This document shows positions 4,703 to 40,775 of a stretch of 64,000 bases of DNA, piece after piece. Location: the IMG/VR virus record IMGVR_UViG_3300027832_000011, positions 1 to 64,000 of that record. One strand, given 5' to 3'. The position numbers and the translations under genes were made by a program. The notes beneath the pieces were generated by a model, which made no database searches, had not been told where the DNA came from, and saw only the letters and a program-made list of their open reading frames with translations. The stretch comes from a virus. Positions within the stretch are counted from its first letter, which is position 1, and every line of letters begins with the position of its first letter.

Positions 4703-5038
4703 TTATTTTAGAACAGACCCTAATAAGTCCAACATTTCCTCAATAGACCAATCTTTTTTTACAAATTTGTAAGACCCATTTTTTAACTCTTTAAATTTTG
4801 GGAAAAGGTAAAATTCGTGAATAACGCTTCTAAACTCTTTACCTATAAAAGAAATTTCATACCCTGTTTTTTCAAAGTGTTTGTTTAATTTATTTGACAG
4901 TCTTGTGCATTTGTTTTCTGTGTCGGCTTTTTGCCAGCACTTTAAAAACGGAATATATTTTCCTTCTTCCCAAAGCGGGTAAGTGATAAATTCTTCACTT
5001 ATGAATGGTATTAATTTTTCTATTTTTTGATTTATCAT
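4703..5038 (-). CDS. Hypothetical protein
   Basis: A 111-residue soluble, Lys-rich, mostly helical protein with aromatic clusters (EFYLFPKFKEL). No family recognised. It is a single-gene cassette; the start follows the GTTATAGG box by about 30 bp and the stop lies in TTATTTTAG just before the next box. Confidence 0.5.
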   Translation of the reverse strand: MINQKIEKLIPFISEEFITYPLWEEGKYIPFLKCWQKADTENKCTRLSNKLNKHFEKTGYEISFIGKEFRSVIHEFYLFPKFKELKNGSYKFVKKDWSIEEMLDLLGSVLK

Positions 5039-5069
5039 ATTTTTAAATTTAATTCGTGAATAAAAACAA

Positions 5070-5155
5070 CCTATAACGCACGCTTGGTAAAAGTGGTGGT
5101 TTGAAAATTTGCGCTTCTATGCCCCACCTGACACAAACCCGAAAACGTTGTGTGT
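5070..5155 (-). repeat. attC-like site
   Basis: The left box CCTATAACGC and right box ACGTTGTGTG are present. The inner arms GTGGTGG and CCCCACC pair. The right box has GTTG instead of GTTA. Confidence 0.5.
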
Positions 5156-5174
5156 AAGACTAAGATTTCCTTTA

Positions 5175-5360
5175 TTAACACGATTGGTCGCATCCGTTAC
5201 CTAAACAACAAGATAATCCACACCAACCTGTTTTATTATCGTAAATTTCATCACATTCTTCGCAAATATCTTTTCCAGTGTATTCACCATATTTATCACA
5301 ATACTCATCGCATCCTTCGCAATATAATTGACATTGTTATGTTTTTTCGTAACTTTTCAT
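5175..5360 (-). pseudogene. Cysteine-rich small protein with an in-frame stop at codon 8
   Basis: The frame begins MKSYEKT, meets TAA, and continues QCQLYCEGCDEYC and on to GCDQSC before its normal TAA. The 61 codons contain about 13 cysteines in CxxC pairs, so a zinc-binding or disulfide-rich fold is likely. No alternative ATG lies between the stop and the first Cys. It is either a decayed gene, an assembly error, or started from a non-ATG codon. It is the only coding content of this cassette. Confidence 0.5.
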
Positions 5361-19656: not shown

Positions 19657-19999
19657 TAGTGGAGATAGAGGGAATCGAACCCTCGTGTAAGATACTTTTC
19701 AATAACTTTCTACATGTTTACCTAGTTTACTAAAACTAGTAAATCTTTTTAAATGTTTATAAAGTGTTACATCTATTCACTTAATCTATTTAACCATTAG
19801 ATTTCATGGTAATCGTAATACTATTTCTTAGGCAATAGTAACCTCTCTGTTTAACGTACCCATTTGAGCACCTTCGAAGATGTTTTCTGAAATACTAAAA
19901 GTATCTGCGTTTAAATTTTTTATAGTTTTTTTAAGTGATACTAAATAACACTACATGCTTATTATCTAAAACTATACCATATCGATACCAGTTACCCCC
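19657..19999 (-). ncRNA. ssrA: Phage-encoded tmRNA
   Basis: Transfer-messenger RNA of about 343 nt, for rescue of stalled ribosomes. The 5' end GGGGGTA (19999-19993) pairs with TATCTCC (19667-19661) into a 7-bp acceptor stem. CTGGTATCGATATGG resembles the CUGGAUUCGAC block of tmRNAs, and AAGCATGTAGTG resembles the Bacteroidetes tmRNA block. GAGGG-TTCGATT-CCCTC is the T arm. The reading frame for the tag starts at GCA (19908), 91 nt from the 5' end as in known tmRNAs, and stops at TAA (19830-19828). It gives 26 residues, from ADTFS to EVTIA, longer than the usual 8-15. The 3' end is ACTA, so CCA would be added or repaired. A tRNA alone is excluded by the length. Confidence 0.85.
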
Positions 20000-34573: not shown

Positions 34574-36811
34574 TTACTTAACGTATATTTCTGATATATT
34601 ATCAGTTTTGGTTATTGATATTATATTGTCAGACCAATCTTTCACAATGTCGTTGTGTGTGATTAAAAATACAATCTCGTACATGTCACGTATCTTCTCA
34701 AACATTGGTTTCAATTTTTCAATATTAATATCAGCTATTTTACCCAAAACTTCGTCAAACGTAATGAAATTTGGCATTGGTAGGTGTGACATCTTACCTA
34801 AAACACATCTTAAAGCCAAACTAGCTATGGTTCTTTCTAAACCACTACCAGATTTTAAAGGTTTTAAAATATCATCCTTTTCTAATAAATACTCAACTTC
34901 GTTTTTTGAGTTAATAATTAATTCAATATTAAAATCACAAGACTCATCAAGTAATCTATATAACTCAGAATTTATGATAGGTAATACTGACCTTAACACT
35001 AGTTTACTAATACCCTTTTTACCAACCATTTCAATGTAAACTTTAAATATCTTATCAACCTCTTCCTCGTTCTTAATCTTGGAAACTAAAACATTGTTTT
35101 TCTCAATTAATAATTTCTTATCCCTTAATAAAGTTTCAATCTCACTTATTTTTTTAAGTAATTCAGATTTATTATATTCCTCAATCTGAATATCAGATTT
35201 AATCTTAGAAACCATCAAATCAACGTCTAAGTTAAATTCTATGGAATCTTTATTTAAGTTATACTCAGTTAAAAGTTTATTTTGGTCAACATAATCAACC
35301 TTTAATTGCGCTAACTCCAATTCATTTTTACCAAGTAGGTTTTCTAACCTCATTCGCCTATCAACTAATAATTTATTTGTATTTAAATCCTCAATAACCT
35401 TATTAATTTCAATTAATTTAGCTTCAAATTTTATAATATCACCAATTTTAATAAGTAATAACGCCTTATTATCTTTTATCTCAGTAGAATGGTCCACATC
35501 CTCTAACGGTCTACTACATGTAGGGCATAACTCACCATTTTCCAAATCTGAAACCAACTTTTCAATTCTAAGTTTATCCAGACCAGAATTTGATATTTCA
35601 TTATTTATAATCGCTCTATCCTCAATTAATTTAAAATATTTAGATTCATCATAATCAACAGCTAATAATGATTTAATCTCAACATTTAAATTTGCAATCT
35701 CAACATTTTTATTTTTACCAGCCAAACCAATAGCTGATAATTTACTCTCTAAAGTATCTGGGTTTAGAATTGATATTTTCTCATTAACATTCTTTTTGGA
35801 TGATAATTTAATGTCTTTAGATTCATTTAAATTACTAAGCTTGCCATTTAATACTCCCATAGTTTCGTTTTGATTACTAAATGCAATATCTAGTAACTCA
35901 ATTTTCTCACCACAATCATTTATCTCATCAAATAATGTTGTAATATCATAAATATTAGCAGTTTTAGTTTTAGCAAATTCATTGTACATATCCCTAGCTG
36001 ATTTTTCTTTCAACTCAATTATTTCAAGACCAATGAATTTAGTTAATAATTTACCACTCTCAGTTGGTGTTGAGTCGATTAAATCCTCAAGGTTACCACC
36101 AGTTGCTAATATTGTAATATCAAAATCTTTCTCAGAACCAATCGTATTTTGAATTGTCATAGTTGAAGCCTTGCTATCCTCATCATTCAATAAAACCTCA
36201 TCACCATCTGGTAATAACTCAAAATAATTAAGTTGATTCTTCACAGCCCAACCACCTTCTTTTTTAAGCGTTCTACTCATCTTTCTCTCGATTATAATTT
36301 CCTTACCATCGAATTCAATCATCCCTCTAACCTTCAACTCATTTTCATCGGTATATGAGTTAAAAATTTGTTCATTCTTATCAGTTTTAGTTGTTCTACC
36401 AAAAAATAAGAATTTTAATGCGTCAACACTAAAAGTTGTATTATGTGAAACTATACCATTGGAGTAGTATTGATGAACTTCAGCCACTTGAATGTCATAT
36501 AATGTATCTTTGGAAGACATCAACTCAATGGATTTAACGTTAGACATCCCATTAACTGTTTGAATCGACTCACCAACCTCAACTTCCTTTAAAAGAACGA
36601 AATCCCCATCCTCTTTTTTTAACCTATGGTAATCAGCACCCTCAACGTATTTACCATCTTCAAGTTCACAACGATATACATCAGCATTTTCTTCGGTTAT
36701 ACCACACCAAGTTATATCTTTATATCCATATGGTGTCTCAACCTTAAAGTTTAAATCACCATATTTTTCATATATAGAATTTAATTCACCAATTGTTATT
36801 TCTTTATTCAT
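34574..36811 (-). CDS. C-terminal intein half plus C-terminal part of an SbcC/gp46-like ATPase
   Basis: A 745-residue protein. Residues 1-124 are an intein C-part without endonuclease: block B (GADYHRLKKEDGDF), then block F LYDIQVAEVHQYYSNGIVSHN ending at His123-Asn124, followed by Thr125 as the +1 residue. Residues 125 onward continue an SMC-like ATPase (TTFSVDALKFLFF) with a long coiled coil, the zinc-hook motif CPTCSRPL, the signature KSGSGLERTIASLALR and Walker B FITFDEVLGK. Trans-splicing with the partner at 36839 would restore GGK|TTF, the Walker A loop. It would then pair with the SbcD/gp47 nuclease to process DNA ends. Confidence 0.88.
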   Translation of the reverse strand: MNKEITIGELNSIYEKYGDLNFKVETPYGYKDITWCGITEENADVYRCELEDGKYVEGADYHRLKKEDGDFVLLKEVEVGESIQTVNGMSNVKSIELMSSKDTLYDIQVAEVHQYYSNGIVSHNTTFSVDALKFLFFGRTTKTDKNEQIFNSYTDENELKVRGMIEFDGKEIIIERKMSRTLKKEGGWAVKNQLNYFELLPDGDEVLLNDEDSKASTMTIQNTIGSEKDFDITILATGGNLEDLIDSTPTESGKLLTKFIGLEIIELKEKSARDMYNEFAKTKTANIYDITTLFDEINDCGEKIELLDIAFSNQNETMGVLNGKLSNLNESKDIKLSSKKNVNEKISILNPDTLESKLSAIGLAGKNKNVEIANLNVEIKSLLAVDYDESKYFKLIEDRAIINNEISNSGLDKLRIEKLVSDLENGELCPTCSRPLEDVDHSTEIKDNKALLLIKIGDIIKFEAKLIEINKVIEDLNTNKLLVDRRMRLENLLGKNELELAQLKVDYVDQNKLLTEYNLNKDSIEFNLDVDLMVSKIKSDIQIEEYNKSELLKKISEIETLLRDKKLLIEKNNVLVSKIKNEEEVDKIFKVYIEMVGKKGISKLVLRSVLPIINSELYRLLDESCDFNIELIINSKNEVEYLLEKDDILKPLKSGSGLERTIASLALRCVLGKMSHLPMPNFITFDEVLGKIADINIEKLKPMFEKIRDMYEIVFLITHNDIVKDWSDNIISITKTDNISEIYVK

Positions 36812-36838
36812 TTATTTTCTTCTTAAAATTATCGTTAA

Positions 36839-37417
36839 TTATTTCAATTCATCTGGTAGGAAACCTAGTTTTTTTACTATGTCATCAACATTATAACTAA
36901 TTTTTATGTTAGTGTTTGCCCTAACGCATTTACCACCTTGATTTGATGGGTTTGACGTTACAACATTAAGCCCTTTTAAATTAGCGAATGATATGAAGTT
37001 TTGTTTTGGACCATAACATAAGAAATTGTTTAACATTAACCACTTCAAATTCCAAGACCTATGTGTTTTTTGTGTTAAATCAATATTTAATGAATTATTT
37101 ACCTTATCATCTAATTTCATTAACCTATCTAAATCAACACTTTTAGCTTCCCTAACGAACCATTCCTTCATCAAGCTACGTTGATATGAAATATCCATTA
37201 TATTATCAATAGAAGCTCCTTTAACCTCTATTAACTCACCTTTAGAATTTACCTTAAAAGGTCTGAAAATTATATTAACGTTATTTTTATCAACCCCGTA
37301 TTTTTTTGCGAAATCATTTCTAACTTTAATTTTATTCTCACGACTGTAATTCTCACCTTTATCACCCCAATGTACTTTAATTTTAGCACTTTGAGGAATA
37401 TTTATAATTTTATTCAT
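36839..37417 (-). CDS. N-terminal part of the SbcC/gp46-like ATPase plus N-terminal intein half
   Basis: A 192-residue protein started at MNKIINIPQSAKIK. Residues 1-163 are the N-terminal ATPase extein ending NPSNQGGK. Residues 164-192 are a 29-residue intein N-part: CVRANTNIKISYNVDDI, to GFLPDELK. Cys164 is the intein's first residue. The gene stops, and the C-half gene starts 27 bp later with its own ATG. The 29-residue N-part is short, as in atypically split phage inteins (for example the AceL type). A frameshift or stop inside one intein is the alternative; the frames differ and both ends are clean. Confidence 0.85.
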   Translation of the reverse strand: MNKIINIPQSAKIKVHWGDKGENYSRENKIKVRNDFAKKYGVDKNNVNIIFRPFKVNSKGELIEVKGASIDNIMDISYQRSLMKEWFVREAKSVDLDRLMKLDDKVNNSLNIDLTQKTHRSWNLKWLMLNNFLCYGPKQNFISFANLKGLNVVTSNPSNQGGKCVRANTNIKISYNVDDIVKKLGFLPDELK

Positions 37418-37670
37418 CTTCTCCGTAAATATTTTTATTAACCTTATTAACCTTATTAATTTTAACACTTTCAATTTTAATCACGTCAATAACCTTTGGT
37501 GGTTCCACTTTTTTGTTTTTAATCGGTATTGTAACTCTATGTCCATACTTAATACTATTAAAACCAACCCTAATAGCTTTACTGATGAATAATGTTGTGT
37601 CTAAAACATCATTCAACTCACAATATTCTTTAATATCACTAATTAACTTATCATCAATCTCTATTAACAT
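37410..37670 (-). CDS. Hypothetical protein, possible ribbon-helix-helix
   Basis: An 86-residue protein (MLIEIDDKLISDIKEYCELN). The first 40 residues have a strand-helix-helix pattern like ribbon-helix-helix regulators. The C-terminus is Lys/Val-rich with NKVNKVNKN repeats. It sits between gp47- and gp46-like genes, overlapping each by a few bases. Confidence 0.45.
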   Translation of the reverse strand: MLIEIDDKLISDIKEYCELNDVLDTTLFISKAIRVGFNSIKYGHRVTIPIKNKKVEPPKVIDVIKIESVKINKVNKVNKNIYGEDE

Positions 37671-38482
37671 TATTCGTTTATTAATTTTTCAACATTATTT
37701 TGAACATCATCAACCGAAGTTATTTTAAAATGGTAGAACGAATAATCATTTTCTAACTCATAATCAACATTACTTTTAGTGTTAACATCCCAAATTGTAT
37801 AACCATGTTTAGATACCGTTTCACCAAAATTTTGTTGGATTAATGAACCAGAAAACTTAATTGGGATACCATTATGGTTGAACTCACTGCGTTTGTGTAT
37901 GTCACCTAACAATACCATATCACAACCATCAAAATATTCTAATGACGTACCATGTTCAAATTCATAACCAACATCAGTTTTAGCACCAATTATTGGACCG
38001 TGAAATAAACCAACGTATGTTTTATCACCATATTTAGCTCTACCATCTTCTATGTTCGGTCTAGCGTTTTCTTCGAAAATAGAGTAATTACACCAAACAA
38101 TGTTCTCATCTGGATAACATATACTTTCTTTTAAATAACTAATATTATTATTATCCAATAATTGAATCATTGGTGATATTGAATCTAACCTATCTTTGTT
38201 ATTCTCTAATAAATCGTGATTACCAGCTATTATCACAACTGGTGCTATCTTTGAAAGTTTAGTTAGAAAATCGCAACATAGGATTAATTGCTCATTTGAA
38301 ATTGTTATTTTTTGGTGAACTAAATCACCAGCTACAACGATTCTAACCTCATTATACTCAAAACCTAACATATACTCTCTTAGTTTAATATAAAGCTTAT
38401 TAAAAGATTCGTTATACTCCGTGTGTAATTTATAGGTCCTAATATGTATGTCAGCTAAGTGTATTATTGATTTAATTACCAT
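37670..38482 (-). CDS. SbcD/gp47-like DNA exonuclease subunit
   Basis: A 270-residue metallophosphoesterase started at MVIKSIIHLADIH. Motifs: HLADIHIRTYK (residues 7-17), VAGDLVHQ, IIAGNHDLLEN, LFHGPI and LLGDIHKRS, as in SbcD, Mre11 and T4 gp47. It processes DNA ends with the gp46-like ATPase encoded just downstream. A shorter C-terminal cap than SbcD is normal in phages. A TTG six bases further upstream is not preferred. Confidence 0.92.
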   Translation of the reverse strand: MVIKSIIHLADIHIRTYKLHTEYNESFNKLYIKLREYMLGFEYNEVRIVVAGDLVHQKITISNEQLILCCDFLTKLSKIAPVVIIAGNHDLLENNKDRLDSISPMIQLLDNNNISYLKESICYPDENIVWCNYSIFEENARPNIEDGRAKYGDKTYVGLFHGPIIGAKTDVGYEFEHGTSLEYFDGCDMVLLGDIHKRSEFNHNGIPIKFSGSLIQQNFGETVSKHGYTIWDVNTKSNVDYELENDYSFYHFKITSVDDVQNNVEKLINE

Positions 38483-39119
38483 ACCCAACTAATTTTAATA
38501 CCCTAACTTCATTTCTATTAGTAAGGGAAATTAAATTATCACCTATATTAGAGTTAACCTTAATTTTTATCTTATTTAAATAATAAGAGTTATCAATTAA
38601 CATAACTAATTTTTCATTATCTAAAACTCTAAATGTTTTTTCACTTATGACAGCAAAATCAATCGGTGAGCCAGAATCATTTGAAAGGTTATTATTTATA
38701 GAGTCTACCATCTCAATAATGGTTTGGTTCGATAATAGTTTATCGTGCATGTAGTCAGACTCACTATCCATCTCAATTAGTGTGTCCAAGAAACCAATTT
38801 CCCATTGTAAAACCCAATCACCGTCAACATATGTTTTAGATAATGGTTTATCTAAAACAATTACAACACCTAACTCTAAATCATTGAAAATACCTTCTAA
38901 GATTTTAATGTCCACGTTAAATAATTTAGTACTACCCTTTTTAATCCTACCATTAACAACTTCTTTACCATTGTAAAAGTTAATTGGTTCTACGTTGTCA
39001 TTCTCAATATCATATGAGAATATTGGTTTATCTATAAACCTAACCTTACTCATATTAACCCCATTGTCTGATAACATCTCGCTGTAATCAGAAACTAATT
39101 TTAAAAATTCTTTTTCCAT
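38472..39119 (-). CDS. Hypothetical protein
   Basis: A 215-residue acidic protein (MEKEFLKLVSDYSEMLSDN). Alternating beta and helix with Asp/Asn-rich turns. No family recognised. It overlaps the gp47-like gene and lies in the recombination operon. Confidence 0.5.
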   Translation of the reverse strand: MEKEFLKLVSDYSEMLSDNGVNMSKVRFIDKPIFSYDIENDNVEPINFYNGKEVVNGRIKKGSTKLFNVDIKILEGIFNDLELGVVIVLDKPLSKTYVDGDWVLQWEIGFLDTLIEMDSESDYMHDKLLSNQTIIEMVDSINNNLSNDSGSPIDFAVISEKTFRVLDNEKLVMLIDNSYYLNKIKIKVNSNIGDNLISLTNRNEVRVLKLVGYGN

Positions 39120-39122
39120 AAT

Positions 39123-40775
39123 TTATTTATATAATTGTGTGTACTTGTGTATGTCTAGCAATTTTTTAGCGTCAGACTTTAAATACATTACTGGTATCTT
39201 TTCAAACACCTCATTTACTTTATCCCAATATCCAATCCATATTTGTCTACATTTCATACCAGTTTCCATTTCACACATCAAAGCGTAAGTACTTAATTGC
39301 ATTGAATATATAGAATATTGGCAGTCTTGGAGATGGTCAAAAGGTTTGTTTAGTGTTTTATAACCAAATTTATTGAAGAAATTGAATTCCTTATTTGTGT
39401 TATGTGTTACACTAAAACTAAACCCATATAAAAAAGTACTAGTTAAACTTCCCACTTCGATACATCTAGTTGGCACTGATTCTACTTTACTAACCCTAAT
39501 AATATTTTTAAATGTTTTATTATTATACTCAACATTTAACACCTCTTTACTTAAAAATGGGTTTAAATTATCTGTACTAAAGCAAATATCAATTACGTCA
39601 ACAATTTCACCATTAACCTTTTTATTATATTTAATAACAGTTGTTTTAATACCTAGTGAAGACGCTAACTTATTAAATTCATTTCCTTGCCACTCTATAG
39701 TTGTTGACATAACAAATCTTTTACGTGACTTGTTATAATGACCATTAACATCCATAAACCCACGTAATAAACCCACACGTTGTTCATATGATGACATAAA
39801 AAATGTATCTGGTATACGTTTATCATTTACCAAATTTAATTCTAACCAAACATTTTCATCAACGATTATCGTTTTGGTAATATCTTTATCCCCATCACAT
39901 AACCAAACACCCAATAAATAAGGGTCTAAAGGTAAATCAATGTGTTGATTATCCAAAGCTTTACATATTTTAACCTTAGGTATTTTATATGACCATCTTT
40001 TAGTACCTAACTTATTAGTGTGTTCAAATAATTCTTCTGATGTCATAACTTTATCAGTTAAATTCCCACTACGCATAAATGAAACCAACCATCTATGCTC
40101 ATGGTCAGATATTATTACTTCACCATTATCAAATTCAATTTCAAAACAATCTTTATTTTTTATTTCGGAAAAATGTAAAATATCACATAATTTACCATCC
40201 ATATCATAAACTTTATCACCATGTGATAAGCTAGCCATAGTTTTCCAACCATTATTAGTGAATATTGGTGTGTCTATTGGTAAACCTTTCCAATCCCCAA
40301 TATCAAAGTATGTTTCATTAATATCAATCTTTAAATCAGCAGTGCCAGCTAATTCGTACTCTTCTGAAAACATAATCCTCTCTGGGTATATTTCAATACC
40401 TTCATCAACCTCTAAATCTTCATAAGCTTTAATCACCTTCAATTCAAAAGGGTCGCTAGTGAAATACATTTTATTAGCTAATAGATATCTCTCAACTATT
40501 TCATGAACCATAGTACCGTATATATTAGCAGTGTCATTCAACTCTTGCCAATAATCTAATATTTGTTCTTTATTCATCCCAATATAAGCTGGGTTTTTTT
40601 TTGGGTTTGAGTCTGATTGTTTAGCGATATTACCAGCTATTCTATCACCCTCGAAATGAGGTTCTATTGAAGATAGAACTTTGGTTACCGATGTGAAACG
40701 CTTTCCACTCTCCCTATGAATATAAACATGTTCTATTGGTTCTAAATAGACCATACTTTTCTCAATTTTCGCCAT
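39123..40775 (-). CDS. PD-(D/E)XK nuclease interrupted by a LAGLIDADG intein
   Basis: A 550-residue precursor. The exteins (residues 1-163 and 460-550) form a RecB/Cas4-like nuclease: AGTADLKI (Asp146) and DIGDWK (Lys163). The insert, residues 164-459, is an intein: it starts GLPIDTPIFT, with B-block His in SDHEHRW. LAGLIDADG motifs LLGVWLCDGD (about 287-296) and LLRGFMDVNG (about 336-345) mark a homing endonuclease, and it ends SVTHN|T. Splicing gives DWK-TNKEF, the catalytic Lys-Thr of the nuclease. Gly at the first intein position is unusual. The mature nuclease is 254 residues, perhaps a DNA-end processing enzyme. Confidence 0.88.
   Translation of the reverse strand: MAKIEKSMVYLEPIEHVYIHRESGKRFTSVTKVLSSIEPHFEGDRIAGNIAKQSDSNPKKNPAYIGMNKEQILDYWQELNDTANIYGTMVHEIVERYLLANKMYFTSDPFELKVIKAYEDLEVDEGIEIYPERIMFSEEYELAGTADLKIDINETYFDIGDWKGLPIDTPIFTNNGWKTMASLSHGDKVYDMDGKLCDILHFSEIKNKDCFEIEFDNGEVIISDHEHRWLVSFMRSGNLTDKVMTSEELFEHTNKLGTKRWSYKIPKVKICKALDNQHIDLPLDPYLLGVWLCDGDKDITKTIIVDENVWLELNLVNDKRIPDTFFMSSYEQRVGLLRGFMDVNGHYNKSRKRFVMSTTIEWQGNEFNKLASSLGIKTTVIKYNKKVNGEIVDVIDICFSTDNLNPFLSKEVLNVEYNNKTFKNIIRVSKVESVPTRCIEVGSLTSTFLYGFSFSVTHNTNKEFNFFNKFGYKTLNKPFDHLQDCQYSIYSMQLSTYALMCEMETGMKCRQIWIGYWDKVNEVFEKIPVMYLKSDAKKLLDIHKYTQLYK

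What the first reader, a model, noticed from the sequence alone, without database searches (positions are those of the whole stretch)
34574..37417. Atypically split intein exactly in the P-loop of the gp46/SbcC-like ATPase
The upstream gene ends NPSNQGGK + CVRANTNIK... (29-residue intein N-part). The downstream gene starts with a 124-residue intein C-part ending VSHN, followed by TTFSVDALKF. Joining them restores GGK-TTF, a Walker A motif. The two frames are separate, 27 bp apart, each with its own start and stop. Such short-N split inteins are known from few phage proteins. Splicing would make the ATPase dependent on both genes and perhaps act as a control.
Basis: partly seen in the sequence, partly recalled or inferred. 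Interest (0 to 1): 0.85.

Follow-up and report, generated by a model that had tools for sequence, protein, structure and literature searches.

The report
HEG-less split intein in phage gp46
A phage DNA-repair ATPase is encoded as two separate genes that a naturally split, self-splicing protein element (an intein) should stitch together at the ATP-binding loop; relatives show the same element with a DNA-cutting gene inside it, without that gene, apparently fused back together, or absent, so a mobile element can be followed through nearly its whole life cycle.

Summary
On the minus strand the gp46/SbcC-like ATPase is encoded by two genes, 27 bp apart. They meet at the Walker A motif through a 29-residue IntN and a 124-residue IntC that carry the key intein residues. 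It is not a frameshift or a sequencing error: two in-frame stops separate the halves, and 19 of the 21 other intein-bearing gp46 loci found in IMG/VR break at the same place. In 16 of these a ~340-aa Vsr-like homing endonuclease gene (HEG) sits between the halves. The window, L028 and L039 have short gaps; L028 and L039 keep endonuclease scars, the window's 27 bp do not. Two loci (L002, L022) carry the intein as one continuous frame. 54 distinct relatives have no intein and read straight through GGK-T/S. Intein and gp46 trees conflict, so the element moves between phages. A natural fused relative is predicted to fold like the atypically split intein VidaL; the break lies after the first helix, as in AceL/GOS TerL. 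Best reading: a member of the known 'fractured gene' split inteins that lost or lacks its endonuclease and persists because trans-splicing is needed to make gp46. A regulatory role has no support. The most novel point is apparent natural re-fusion of a split intein.

The parts
36929..37417 (-). N-extein of the gp46/SbcC-like ATPase (163 aa, ends SNPSNQGGK, first half of Walker A)
   Evidence: collinear with intein-free relatives
36842..36928 (-). IntN, 29 aa, CVRANTNIKISYNVDDIVKKLGFLPDELK; Cys1 (block A); stop codon at 36839-36841
   Evidence: same end ..PDELK* (or close variant) in 19 other split loci
36812..36838 (-). 27-bp intergenic gap, second in-frame TAA directly before the ATG; no endonuclease gene and no significant endonuclease scar
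36440..36811 (-). IntC, 124 aa, with block B (GADYH), block F (LYDIQVAEVHQYYSNG) and C-terminal His-Asn
   Evidence: Pfam Intein_splicing E=1e-5; VidaL and gp41-1; dN/dS 0.054 versus L002
34577..36439 (-). C-extein of the ATPase (621 aa): TTFS (rest of P-loop), coiled coil, zinc hook, Walker B, ITHN; stop codon at 34574-34576
   Evidence: PHROG 77 SbcC-like E=1e-26
35516..35527 (-). zinc-hook CPTC of the Rad50/SbcC-like coiled coil
   Evidence: invariant C305/C308 in alignment A3
34751..34768 (-). Walker B region FITFDE
   Evidence: invariant D562/E563 in alignment A3
37670..38488 (-). gp47/SbcD-like phosphoesterase, partner gene upstream on the same strand
   Evidence: Pfam Metallophos E=9e-10, PHROG 100 E=2e-22

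Best explanation
This is a naturally split class 1 intein of the atypical, short-N kind, inserted between Lys and Thr of the Walker A motif of a phage gp46 (SbcC/Rad50-like) ATPase. The two genes are expressed separately, presumably from one operon. IntN (29 aa) and IntC (124 aa) associate, Cys1 and Asn/Thr+1 chemistry joins the two gp46 halves, and only the joined product has a complete P-loop. The element spread as a 'fractured gene' homing unit, with a Vsr-like endonuclease gene between the halves. The copy in the window has no such gene, most likely because it was deleted. Splicing competence is kept because gp46 cannot be made without it, not because the split regulates anything. Shown: anatomy, conservation of key residues, the same break in relatives, purifying selection on IntC, horizontal movement, and endonuclease loss in two relatives. 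Inferred: trans-splicing itself, endonuclease cleavage of empty alleles, and endonuclease loss in the window lineage.
For: Anatomy and families. 22 distinct intein-bearing gp46 loci, 20 split at the identical site. 16 have an intact 324-362 aa ORF between the halves, with a conserved promoter-like stretch in front. 54 distinct intein-free relatives. Tree conflict: the intein data reject L002+L028 as sisters (p=1e-6) although their gp46 proteins are 93% identical; the gp46 data reject window+L002 as sisters (p=3e-6) although their IntC are 92% identical. IntC dN/dS 0.054 at dS about 1. Natural fused relative L002: AlphaFold pLDDT 84, best PDB match VidaL, E=1e-9. Endonuclease scars: L028 0/1000 shuffles, L039 1/1000. 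Endonuclease family linked to DUF559/Vsr-like nucleases. No second gp46 in the record.
Against: No splicing data. The window's 27-bp gap holds no significant endonuclease remnant, so loss in this lineage is inferred from its relatives. The endonuclease assignment is weak for the gp46-associated members themselves (best Pfam nuclease hit E=0.033; PDB 3r3p E=0.076) and rests partly on distant members. The record is a 76-kb, possibly incomplete contig, so a whole gp46 or an endonuclease elsewhere in the phage is not excluded.
Confidence: 0.87

Rival explanations
1. The split is kept because it regulates gp46, for example by making ATPase assembly depend on the balance of two gene products or on conditions during infection.
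For: The break sits in the catalytic P-loop, so the enzyme must be inactive before splicing; endonuclease-less split alleles persist in at least three lineages (window, L028, L039).
Against: Most relatives do without any intein (54 distinct); close relatives carry fused or endonuclease-bearing forms; intein and host trees conflict. P-loop insertion also occurs in unrelated ATPases, as expected for homing into conserved codons.
Confidence: 0.06
2. The intein is dead or the break is an assembly or sequencing error in a contiguous intein.
For: The two frames are in register across the 27-bp gap, and contiguous relatives exist (L002, L022).
Against: Two in-frame stops; the same termini (..PDELK* and M..KEI.IG) in 19 other split loci, most with a whole gene between; L039 has a 40-bp gap, not a multiple of three; IntC under strong purifying selection.
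Confidence: 0.03
3. The window shows the state before endonuclease entry: the intein was first split by a small insertion, and endonucleases entered such gaps later. (This concerns history only and is compatible with the trans-splicing mechanism.)
For: The window's 27 bp show no significant similarity to the endonuclease flanks.
Against: In the intein tree the window is nested among endonuclease-bearing forms (moderate support); L028 and L039 show the loss direction by scars; the distant gp46 L124 has the same split with an ORF between.
Confidence: 0.15

Closest known systems
'Fractured genes' with split inteins and Vsr-like homing endonucleases (Dassa et al. 2009, NAR 37:2560; cited in PMC11766414 and PMC13014065; paper not held, content from own knowledge)
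   Same: Phage DNA-metabolism enzyme broken by a split intein; in 16 relatives a free-standing Vsr/DUF559-like endonuclease ORF sits between the halves, preceded by a conserved control-like sequence.
   Different: The window copy has no endonuclease; the host gene is gp46/SbcC (whether the 2009 set included it could not be checked); the same site also shows empty, endonuclease-less and fused alleles.
AceL-TerL and GOS-TerL atypically split inteins
   Same: Short IntN (25 and 37 aa against 29 here) and a break after the first helix, the S2 site (PMC11766414, PMC13014065; model). P-loop insertion in those TerL genes is from own knowledge.
   Different: Different host gene; nucleophiles here are Cys1/Thr+1, whereas GOS-TerL uses Ser1/Cys+1 (PMC11766414); IntC profile hits to the related engineered Cat intein are weak (E=6e-4).
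VidaL atypically split intein (PDB 6vgv)
   Same: Best structural match (E=1e-9, TM 0.67-0.71) and among the best sequence-profile matches; IntC aligns over its whole length, with Ala in place of block-B Thr in both.
   Different: VidaL IntN is 16 aa with an earlier break, the S1 site (PMC13014065); only about 26% identity.
gp41-1 split intein
   Same: Phage split intein; a gp41-1 relative (E=4e-13) sits in the DnaB-like gene of the same phage.
   Different: Canonical break with a long IntN; a different intein lineage from the gp46 one.

Membership tests
Intein (HINT splicing domain, class 1) | Cys/Ser1, block B His, block F, C-terminal His-Asn, Cys/Ser/Thr at +1 | tested here: met
   C1, H in GADYH, LYDIQVAEVH, SHN, T+1; block-B His, His-Asn and Thr+1 invariant over 16 aligned relatives, Cys1 in all 22; Pfam E=1e-5
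Intein (HINT splicing domain, class 1) | HINT fold | tested here: met
   Model of the natural fused relative L002 (pLDDT 84): top 50 PDB matches are inteins or intein-like domains. The window pair itself could not be modelled as a complex.
Intein (HINT splicing domain, class 1) | Host protein exists without the insert and reads through | tested here: met
   54 distinct uninterrupted relatives with GGK-T/S
Atypically split intein | Two separate genes; IntN about 15-37 aa; break near the N end | tested here: met
   IntN 29 aa; break after helix 1; range from PMC13014065 and PMC11766414
Atypically split intein | Protein trans-splicing activity | not testable with these tools
   needs co-expression
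Fractured gene | Free-standing endonuclease gene between the halves | tested here: not met
   Window gap is 27 bp, no match in the 76-kb record (positive controls ring). Met in 16 relatives. The window is therefore filed as an endonuclease-less relative.
gp46/SbcC/Rad50-like ATPase | Split ABC ATPase with Walker A, coiled coil, zinc hook, Walker B; SbcD partner adjacent | tested here: met
   PHROG 77 E=1e-26, PHROG 100 neighbour; invariant CxxC and DE; Walker A starts with Pro instead of Gly
Vsr-like (EDxHD-type) homing endonuclease, for the ORF in relatives | Recognisable Vsr/DUF559-type nuclease core | tested here: inconclusive
   DUF559 above cut-off in distant members L132 and L137, Vsr E=0.003 in L137; gp46-associated members only weak hits; AlphaFold model poor

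The most novel reading that the evidence does not exclude
In this phage clade a naturally split intein has been turned back into a contiguous one (L002 LPDE|ITIGEL, L022 LPDEL|NEEITIGEL), at least once and perhaps twice. Endonuclease-less split pairs such as the window's would be the intermediate stage: splitting would be a reversible step in the homing cycle and not an end point.
Probability: 0.45. Interest if true: 0.68.

Novelty: new member of a known kind. Interest (0 to 1): 0.56.

Why it matters
Split inteins are widely used protein-ligation tools, and naturally split ones with a short N part are few. This clade adds about 20 natural pairs that share one break point. More importantly, one host gene at one site shows empty, endonuclease-bearing, endonuclease-less and apparently re-fused alleles among related phages, which makes the question of how split inteins arise and whether splitting can be undone directly testable. 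The same phage also carries an unrelated gp41-1-like split intein, so two trans-splicing pairs would have to work side by side.

Tried and rejected
Endonuclease scar in the window's own 27-bp gap: similarity to endonuclease flanks is no better than shuffles (678-852 of 1000 reach the score), so dropped. Frameshift or single-error origin: rejected (two in-frame stops, shared break point). Contiguous form as the ancestor of all split forms: rejected at p=0.007, with distant outgroups on very long branches; contiguous forms as one clade not rejected (p=0.15 and 0.22), so the number of fusions is open. The conserved sequence before the endonuclease ORF as a general promoter of this phage: no match in the window, and the shorter core is at chance level. 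AlphaFold of the endonuclease with three sequences: pLDDT 49, not used. Cultured phages: no close gp46 relative. Bacterial and archaeal genomes: one hit only, an intein-free contig in a Prochlorococcus assembly that IMG/VR also lists as viral. Dassa 2009 and Bachmann 2015 are not held.

Full report
The observation. On the minus strand, 36839-37417 encodes a 192-aa protein ending ...NPSNQGGK-CVRANTNIKISYNVDDIVKKLGFLPDELK*. After 27 bp, 34574-36811 encodes a 745-aa protein starting MNKEITIGELN... that contains ...HQYYSNGIVSHN-TTFSVDALKF. The frames are in register, but two in-frame stops separate them: the IntN stop and a TAA immediately before the ATG. IntC matches Pfam Intein_splicing (E=1e-5, below Pfam's own cut-off). 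The C-extein matches the SbcC-like PHROG (E=1e-26), and an SbcD-like gene lies upstream.

Relatives. Scans of IMG/VR gave 22 distinct intein-bearing gp46 loci, the window included, and 54 distinct intein-free ones. In 20 of the 22 the intein is split, and always at the same place: IntN is 29 residues (30 in L040) and ends PDELK* or a close variant; IntC starts a few residues before I.IG. In 16 loci the 1.02-1.59-kb gap holds an intact ORF of 324-362 aa, preceded by a conserved stretch of the type TTTACCTTTTTGGTTAAACGGTTATATTTATA. One more (L033 and its near-identical copies) has a 558-bp gap that starts with a remnant reading VDPSVIIKRLK, like the endonuclease N-terminus, and then an unrelated ORF. 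Three have short gaps: window 27 bp, L039 40 bp, L028 96 bp. Two are contiguous: L002 (LPDE-ITIGEL) and L022 (LPDEL-NEEITIGEL).

Endonuclease loss. The L028 gap keeps the 5' flank of the endonuclease region (0 of 1000 shuffles reach the score), and the L039 gap keeps the 3' end (1 of 1000), so both lost an endonuclease gene. The window's gap does not reach significance. Its loss is inferred from the shared break point and from its nested position. A profile of the endonuclease family finds nothing in the window's 76-kb record, while it rings strongly in the records of L005 and L017.

Movement. The intein tree and the gp46 tree conflict. The gp46 proteins of L002 and L028 are 93% identical (C-extein dS 0.25), but their inteins are only 77% identical (IntC dS 3.0), and one is fused while the other is split; the intein data reject them as sisters (p=1e-6). 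Conversely, window and L002 share 92% of IntC but only about 51% of gp46, and the gp46 data reject them as sisters (p=3e-6). Flanking identity between L002 and L028 returns to about 95% directly at both splice sites, so the replaced stretch is essentially the intein.

Selection and fold. IntC of window versus L002 has dN/dS 0.054 with dS about 1, so the split, endonuclease-less copy is being kept functional; IntN, with few sites, gives 0.34. A model of the natural fused L002 intein (pLDDT 84) matches VidaL best (E=1e-9), then NrdJ-1, Npu DnaB and others. The break lies after the first helix, the S2 site known from AceL TerL and GOS TerL; VidaL breaks earlier, at S1 (PMC13014065). IntN lengths of 25 (AceL) and 37 (GOS) are from PMC11766414.

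The ORF between the halves. The gp46-associated members match PHROG 22677 of unknown function (E to 9e-31). Distant members that also sit between intein halves match DUF559 above cut-off and Vsr weakly, and a 30-sequence profile picks 3r3p (I-Bth0305I, name from memory) and Vsr in the PDB, but only at E=0.08-0.5. A Vsr-like homing endonuclease is the best reading but is not proven. Loci of this family show short-N split inteins at P-loops of terminase, AAA+/Clp-like, DnaB-like and other SbcC genes (host genes named from sequence motifs), including the distant gp46 of L124, whose IntN (CVDPDTEIEIQYNIEEIIKKLGFLPNELK*) is clearly related to the window's.

Mechanism. Cys1, block-B His, penultimate His, terminal Asn and Thr+1 are all present, so a class 1 trans-splicing reaction is expected; it would join GGK to TTF and complete the P-loop. 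In this clade the P-loop reads PxNxGGK[T/S] in 54 of 54 intein-free genes. No second gp46 is seen in the record, so splicing is presumably required for gp46 activity. That gives selection to keep the intein working even without an endonuclease. There is no sign that the split serves as a control.

Direction of change. With the distant L124 and L122 as outgroups, a tree in which all split forms of this clade form one group apart from the contiguous ones is rejected (p=0.007). With the shared termini this favours re-fusion of a split intein in L002 and L022. Long outgroup branches, moderate support and the possible mosaic origin of L002 (its IntN is only 52% identical to the window's, against 92% for IntC) keep this at about even odds.

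Known or new. Function and layout fit the 'fractured gene' split inteins (Dassa et al. 2009, recalled, not held) and the atypically split inteins AceL/GOS TerL and VidaL. The window copy fails one defining feature of fractured genes, the endonuclease in the gap, and is best described as an endonuclease-less member of that lineage in a gp46 gene. Whether gp46 was among the 2009 host genes could not be checked.

Noticed in passing
window 39123-40775 (-): Exonuclease (PHROG 298) gene with an intein at DWK|T that begins GLPIDTP (no Cys1) but has Trp in block B (EHRW), Cys in block F (TRC) and Thr before the final His-Asn (VTHN): looks like a class 3 intein; weak homing-endonuclease Pfam match (Hom_end E=0.009).
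   Followed up: partly
L222:5379-7781 and 4868-5332 (-), i.e. G000 contig about 68868-71781, outside the window: DnaB/gp41-like helicase of the same phage carries a second, unrelated natural split intein, related to gp41-1 (PDB 6qaz, E=4e-13), with a 46-bp gap and no gene between.
   Followed up: partly
L222:5379-7781 (-): The same helicase gene has a contiguous, endonuclease-bearing intein at its P-loop (GVGK|ALPNSNK...FIVTHN|TTMITK) with Ala at position 1 and a W/C/T pattern like class 3. The phage thus carries four inteins, two of them split.
   Followed up: no
window 19657-19999 (-): Phage-encoded tmRNA (Rfam RF00023, 63 bits, E=3e-22).
   Followed up: no
L002:930-3028: The gp47/SbcD gene next to the fused-intein gp46 appears to be interrupted by a zinc-finger-like ORF with an EADGDYWH nuclease-like motif (1684-2583), weakly matching the endonuclease profile (E=1e-9); Rfam finds no intron there.
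   Followed up: partly
L117, L127, L130, L133, L135, L102, L122, L124: Other, distant SbcC/gp46 genes are also broken at the P-loop with nuclease-like ORFs between short-N intein halves, so this site has been invaded several times.
   Followed up: partly
L029, L030, L031, L033, L034 gaps: Extra small ORFs lie next to, or in place of, the endonuclease between the intein halves; those of L029 and L033 look related to each other.
   Followed up: no
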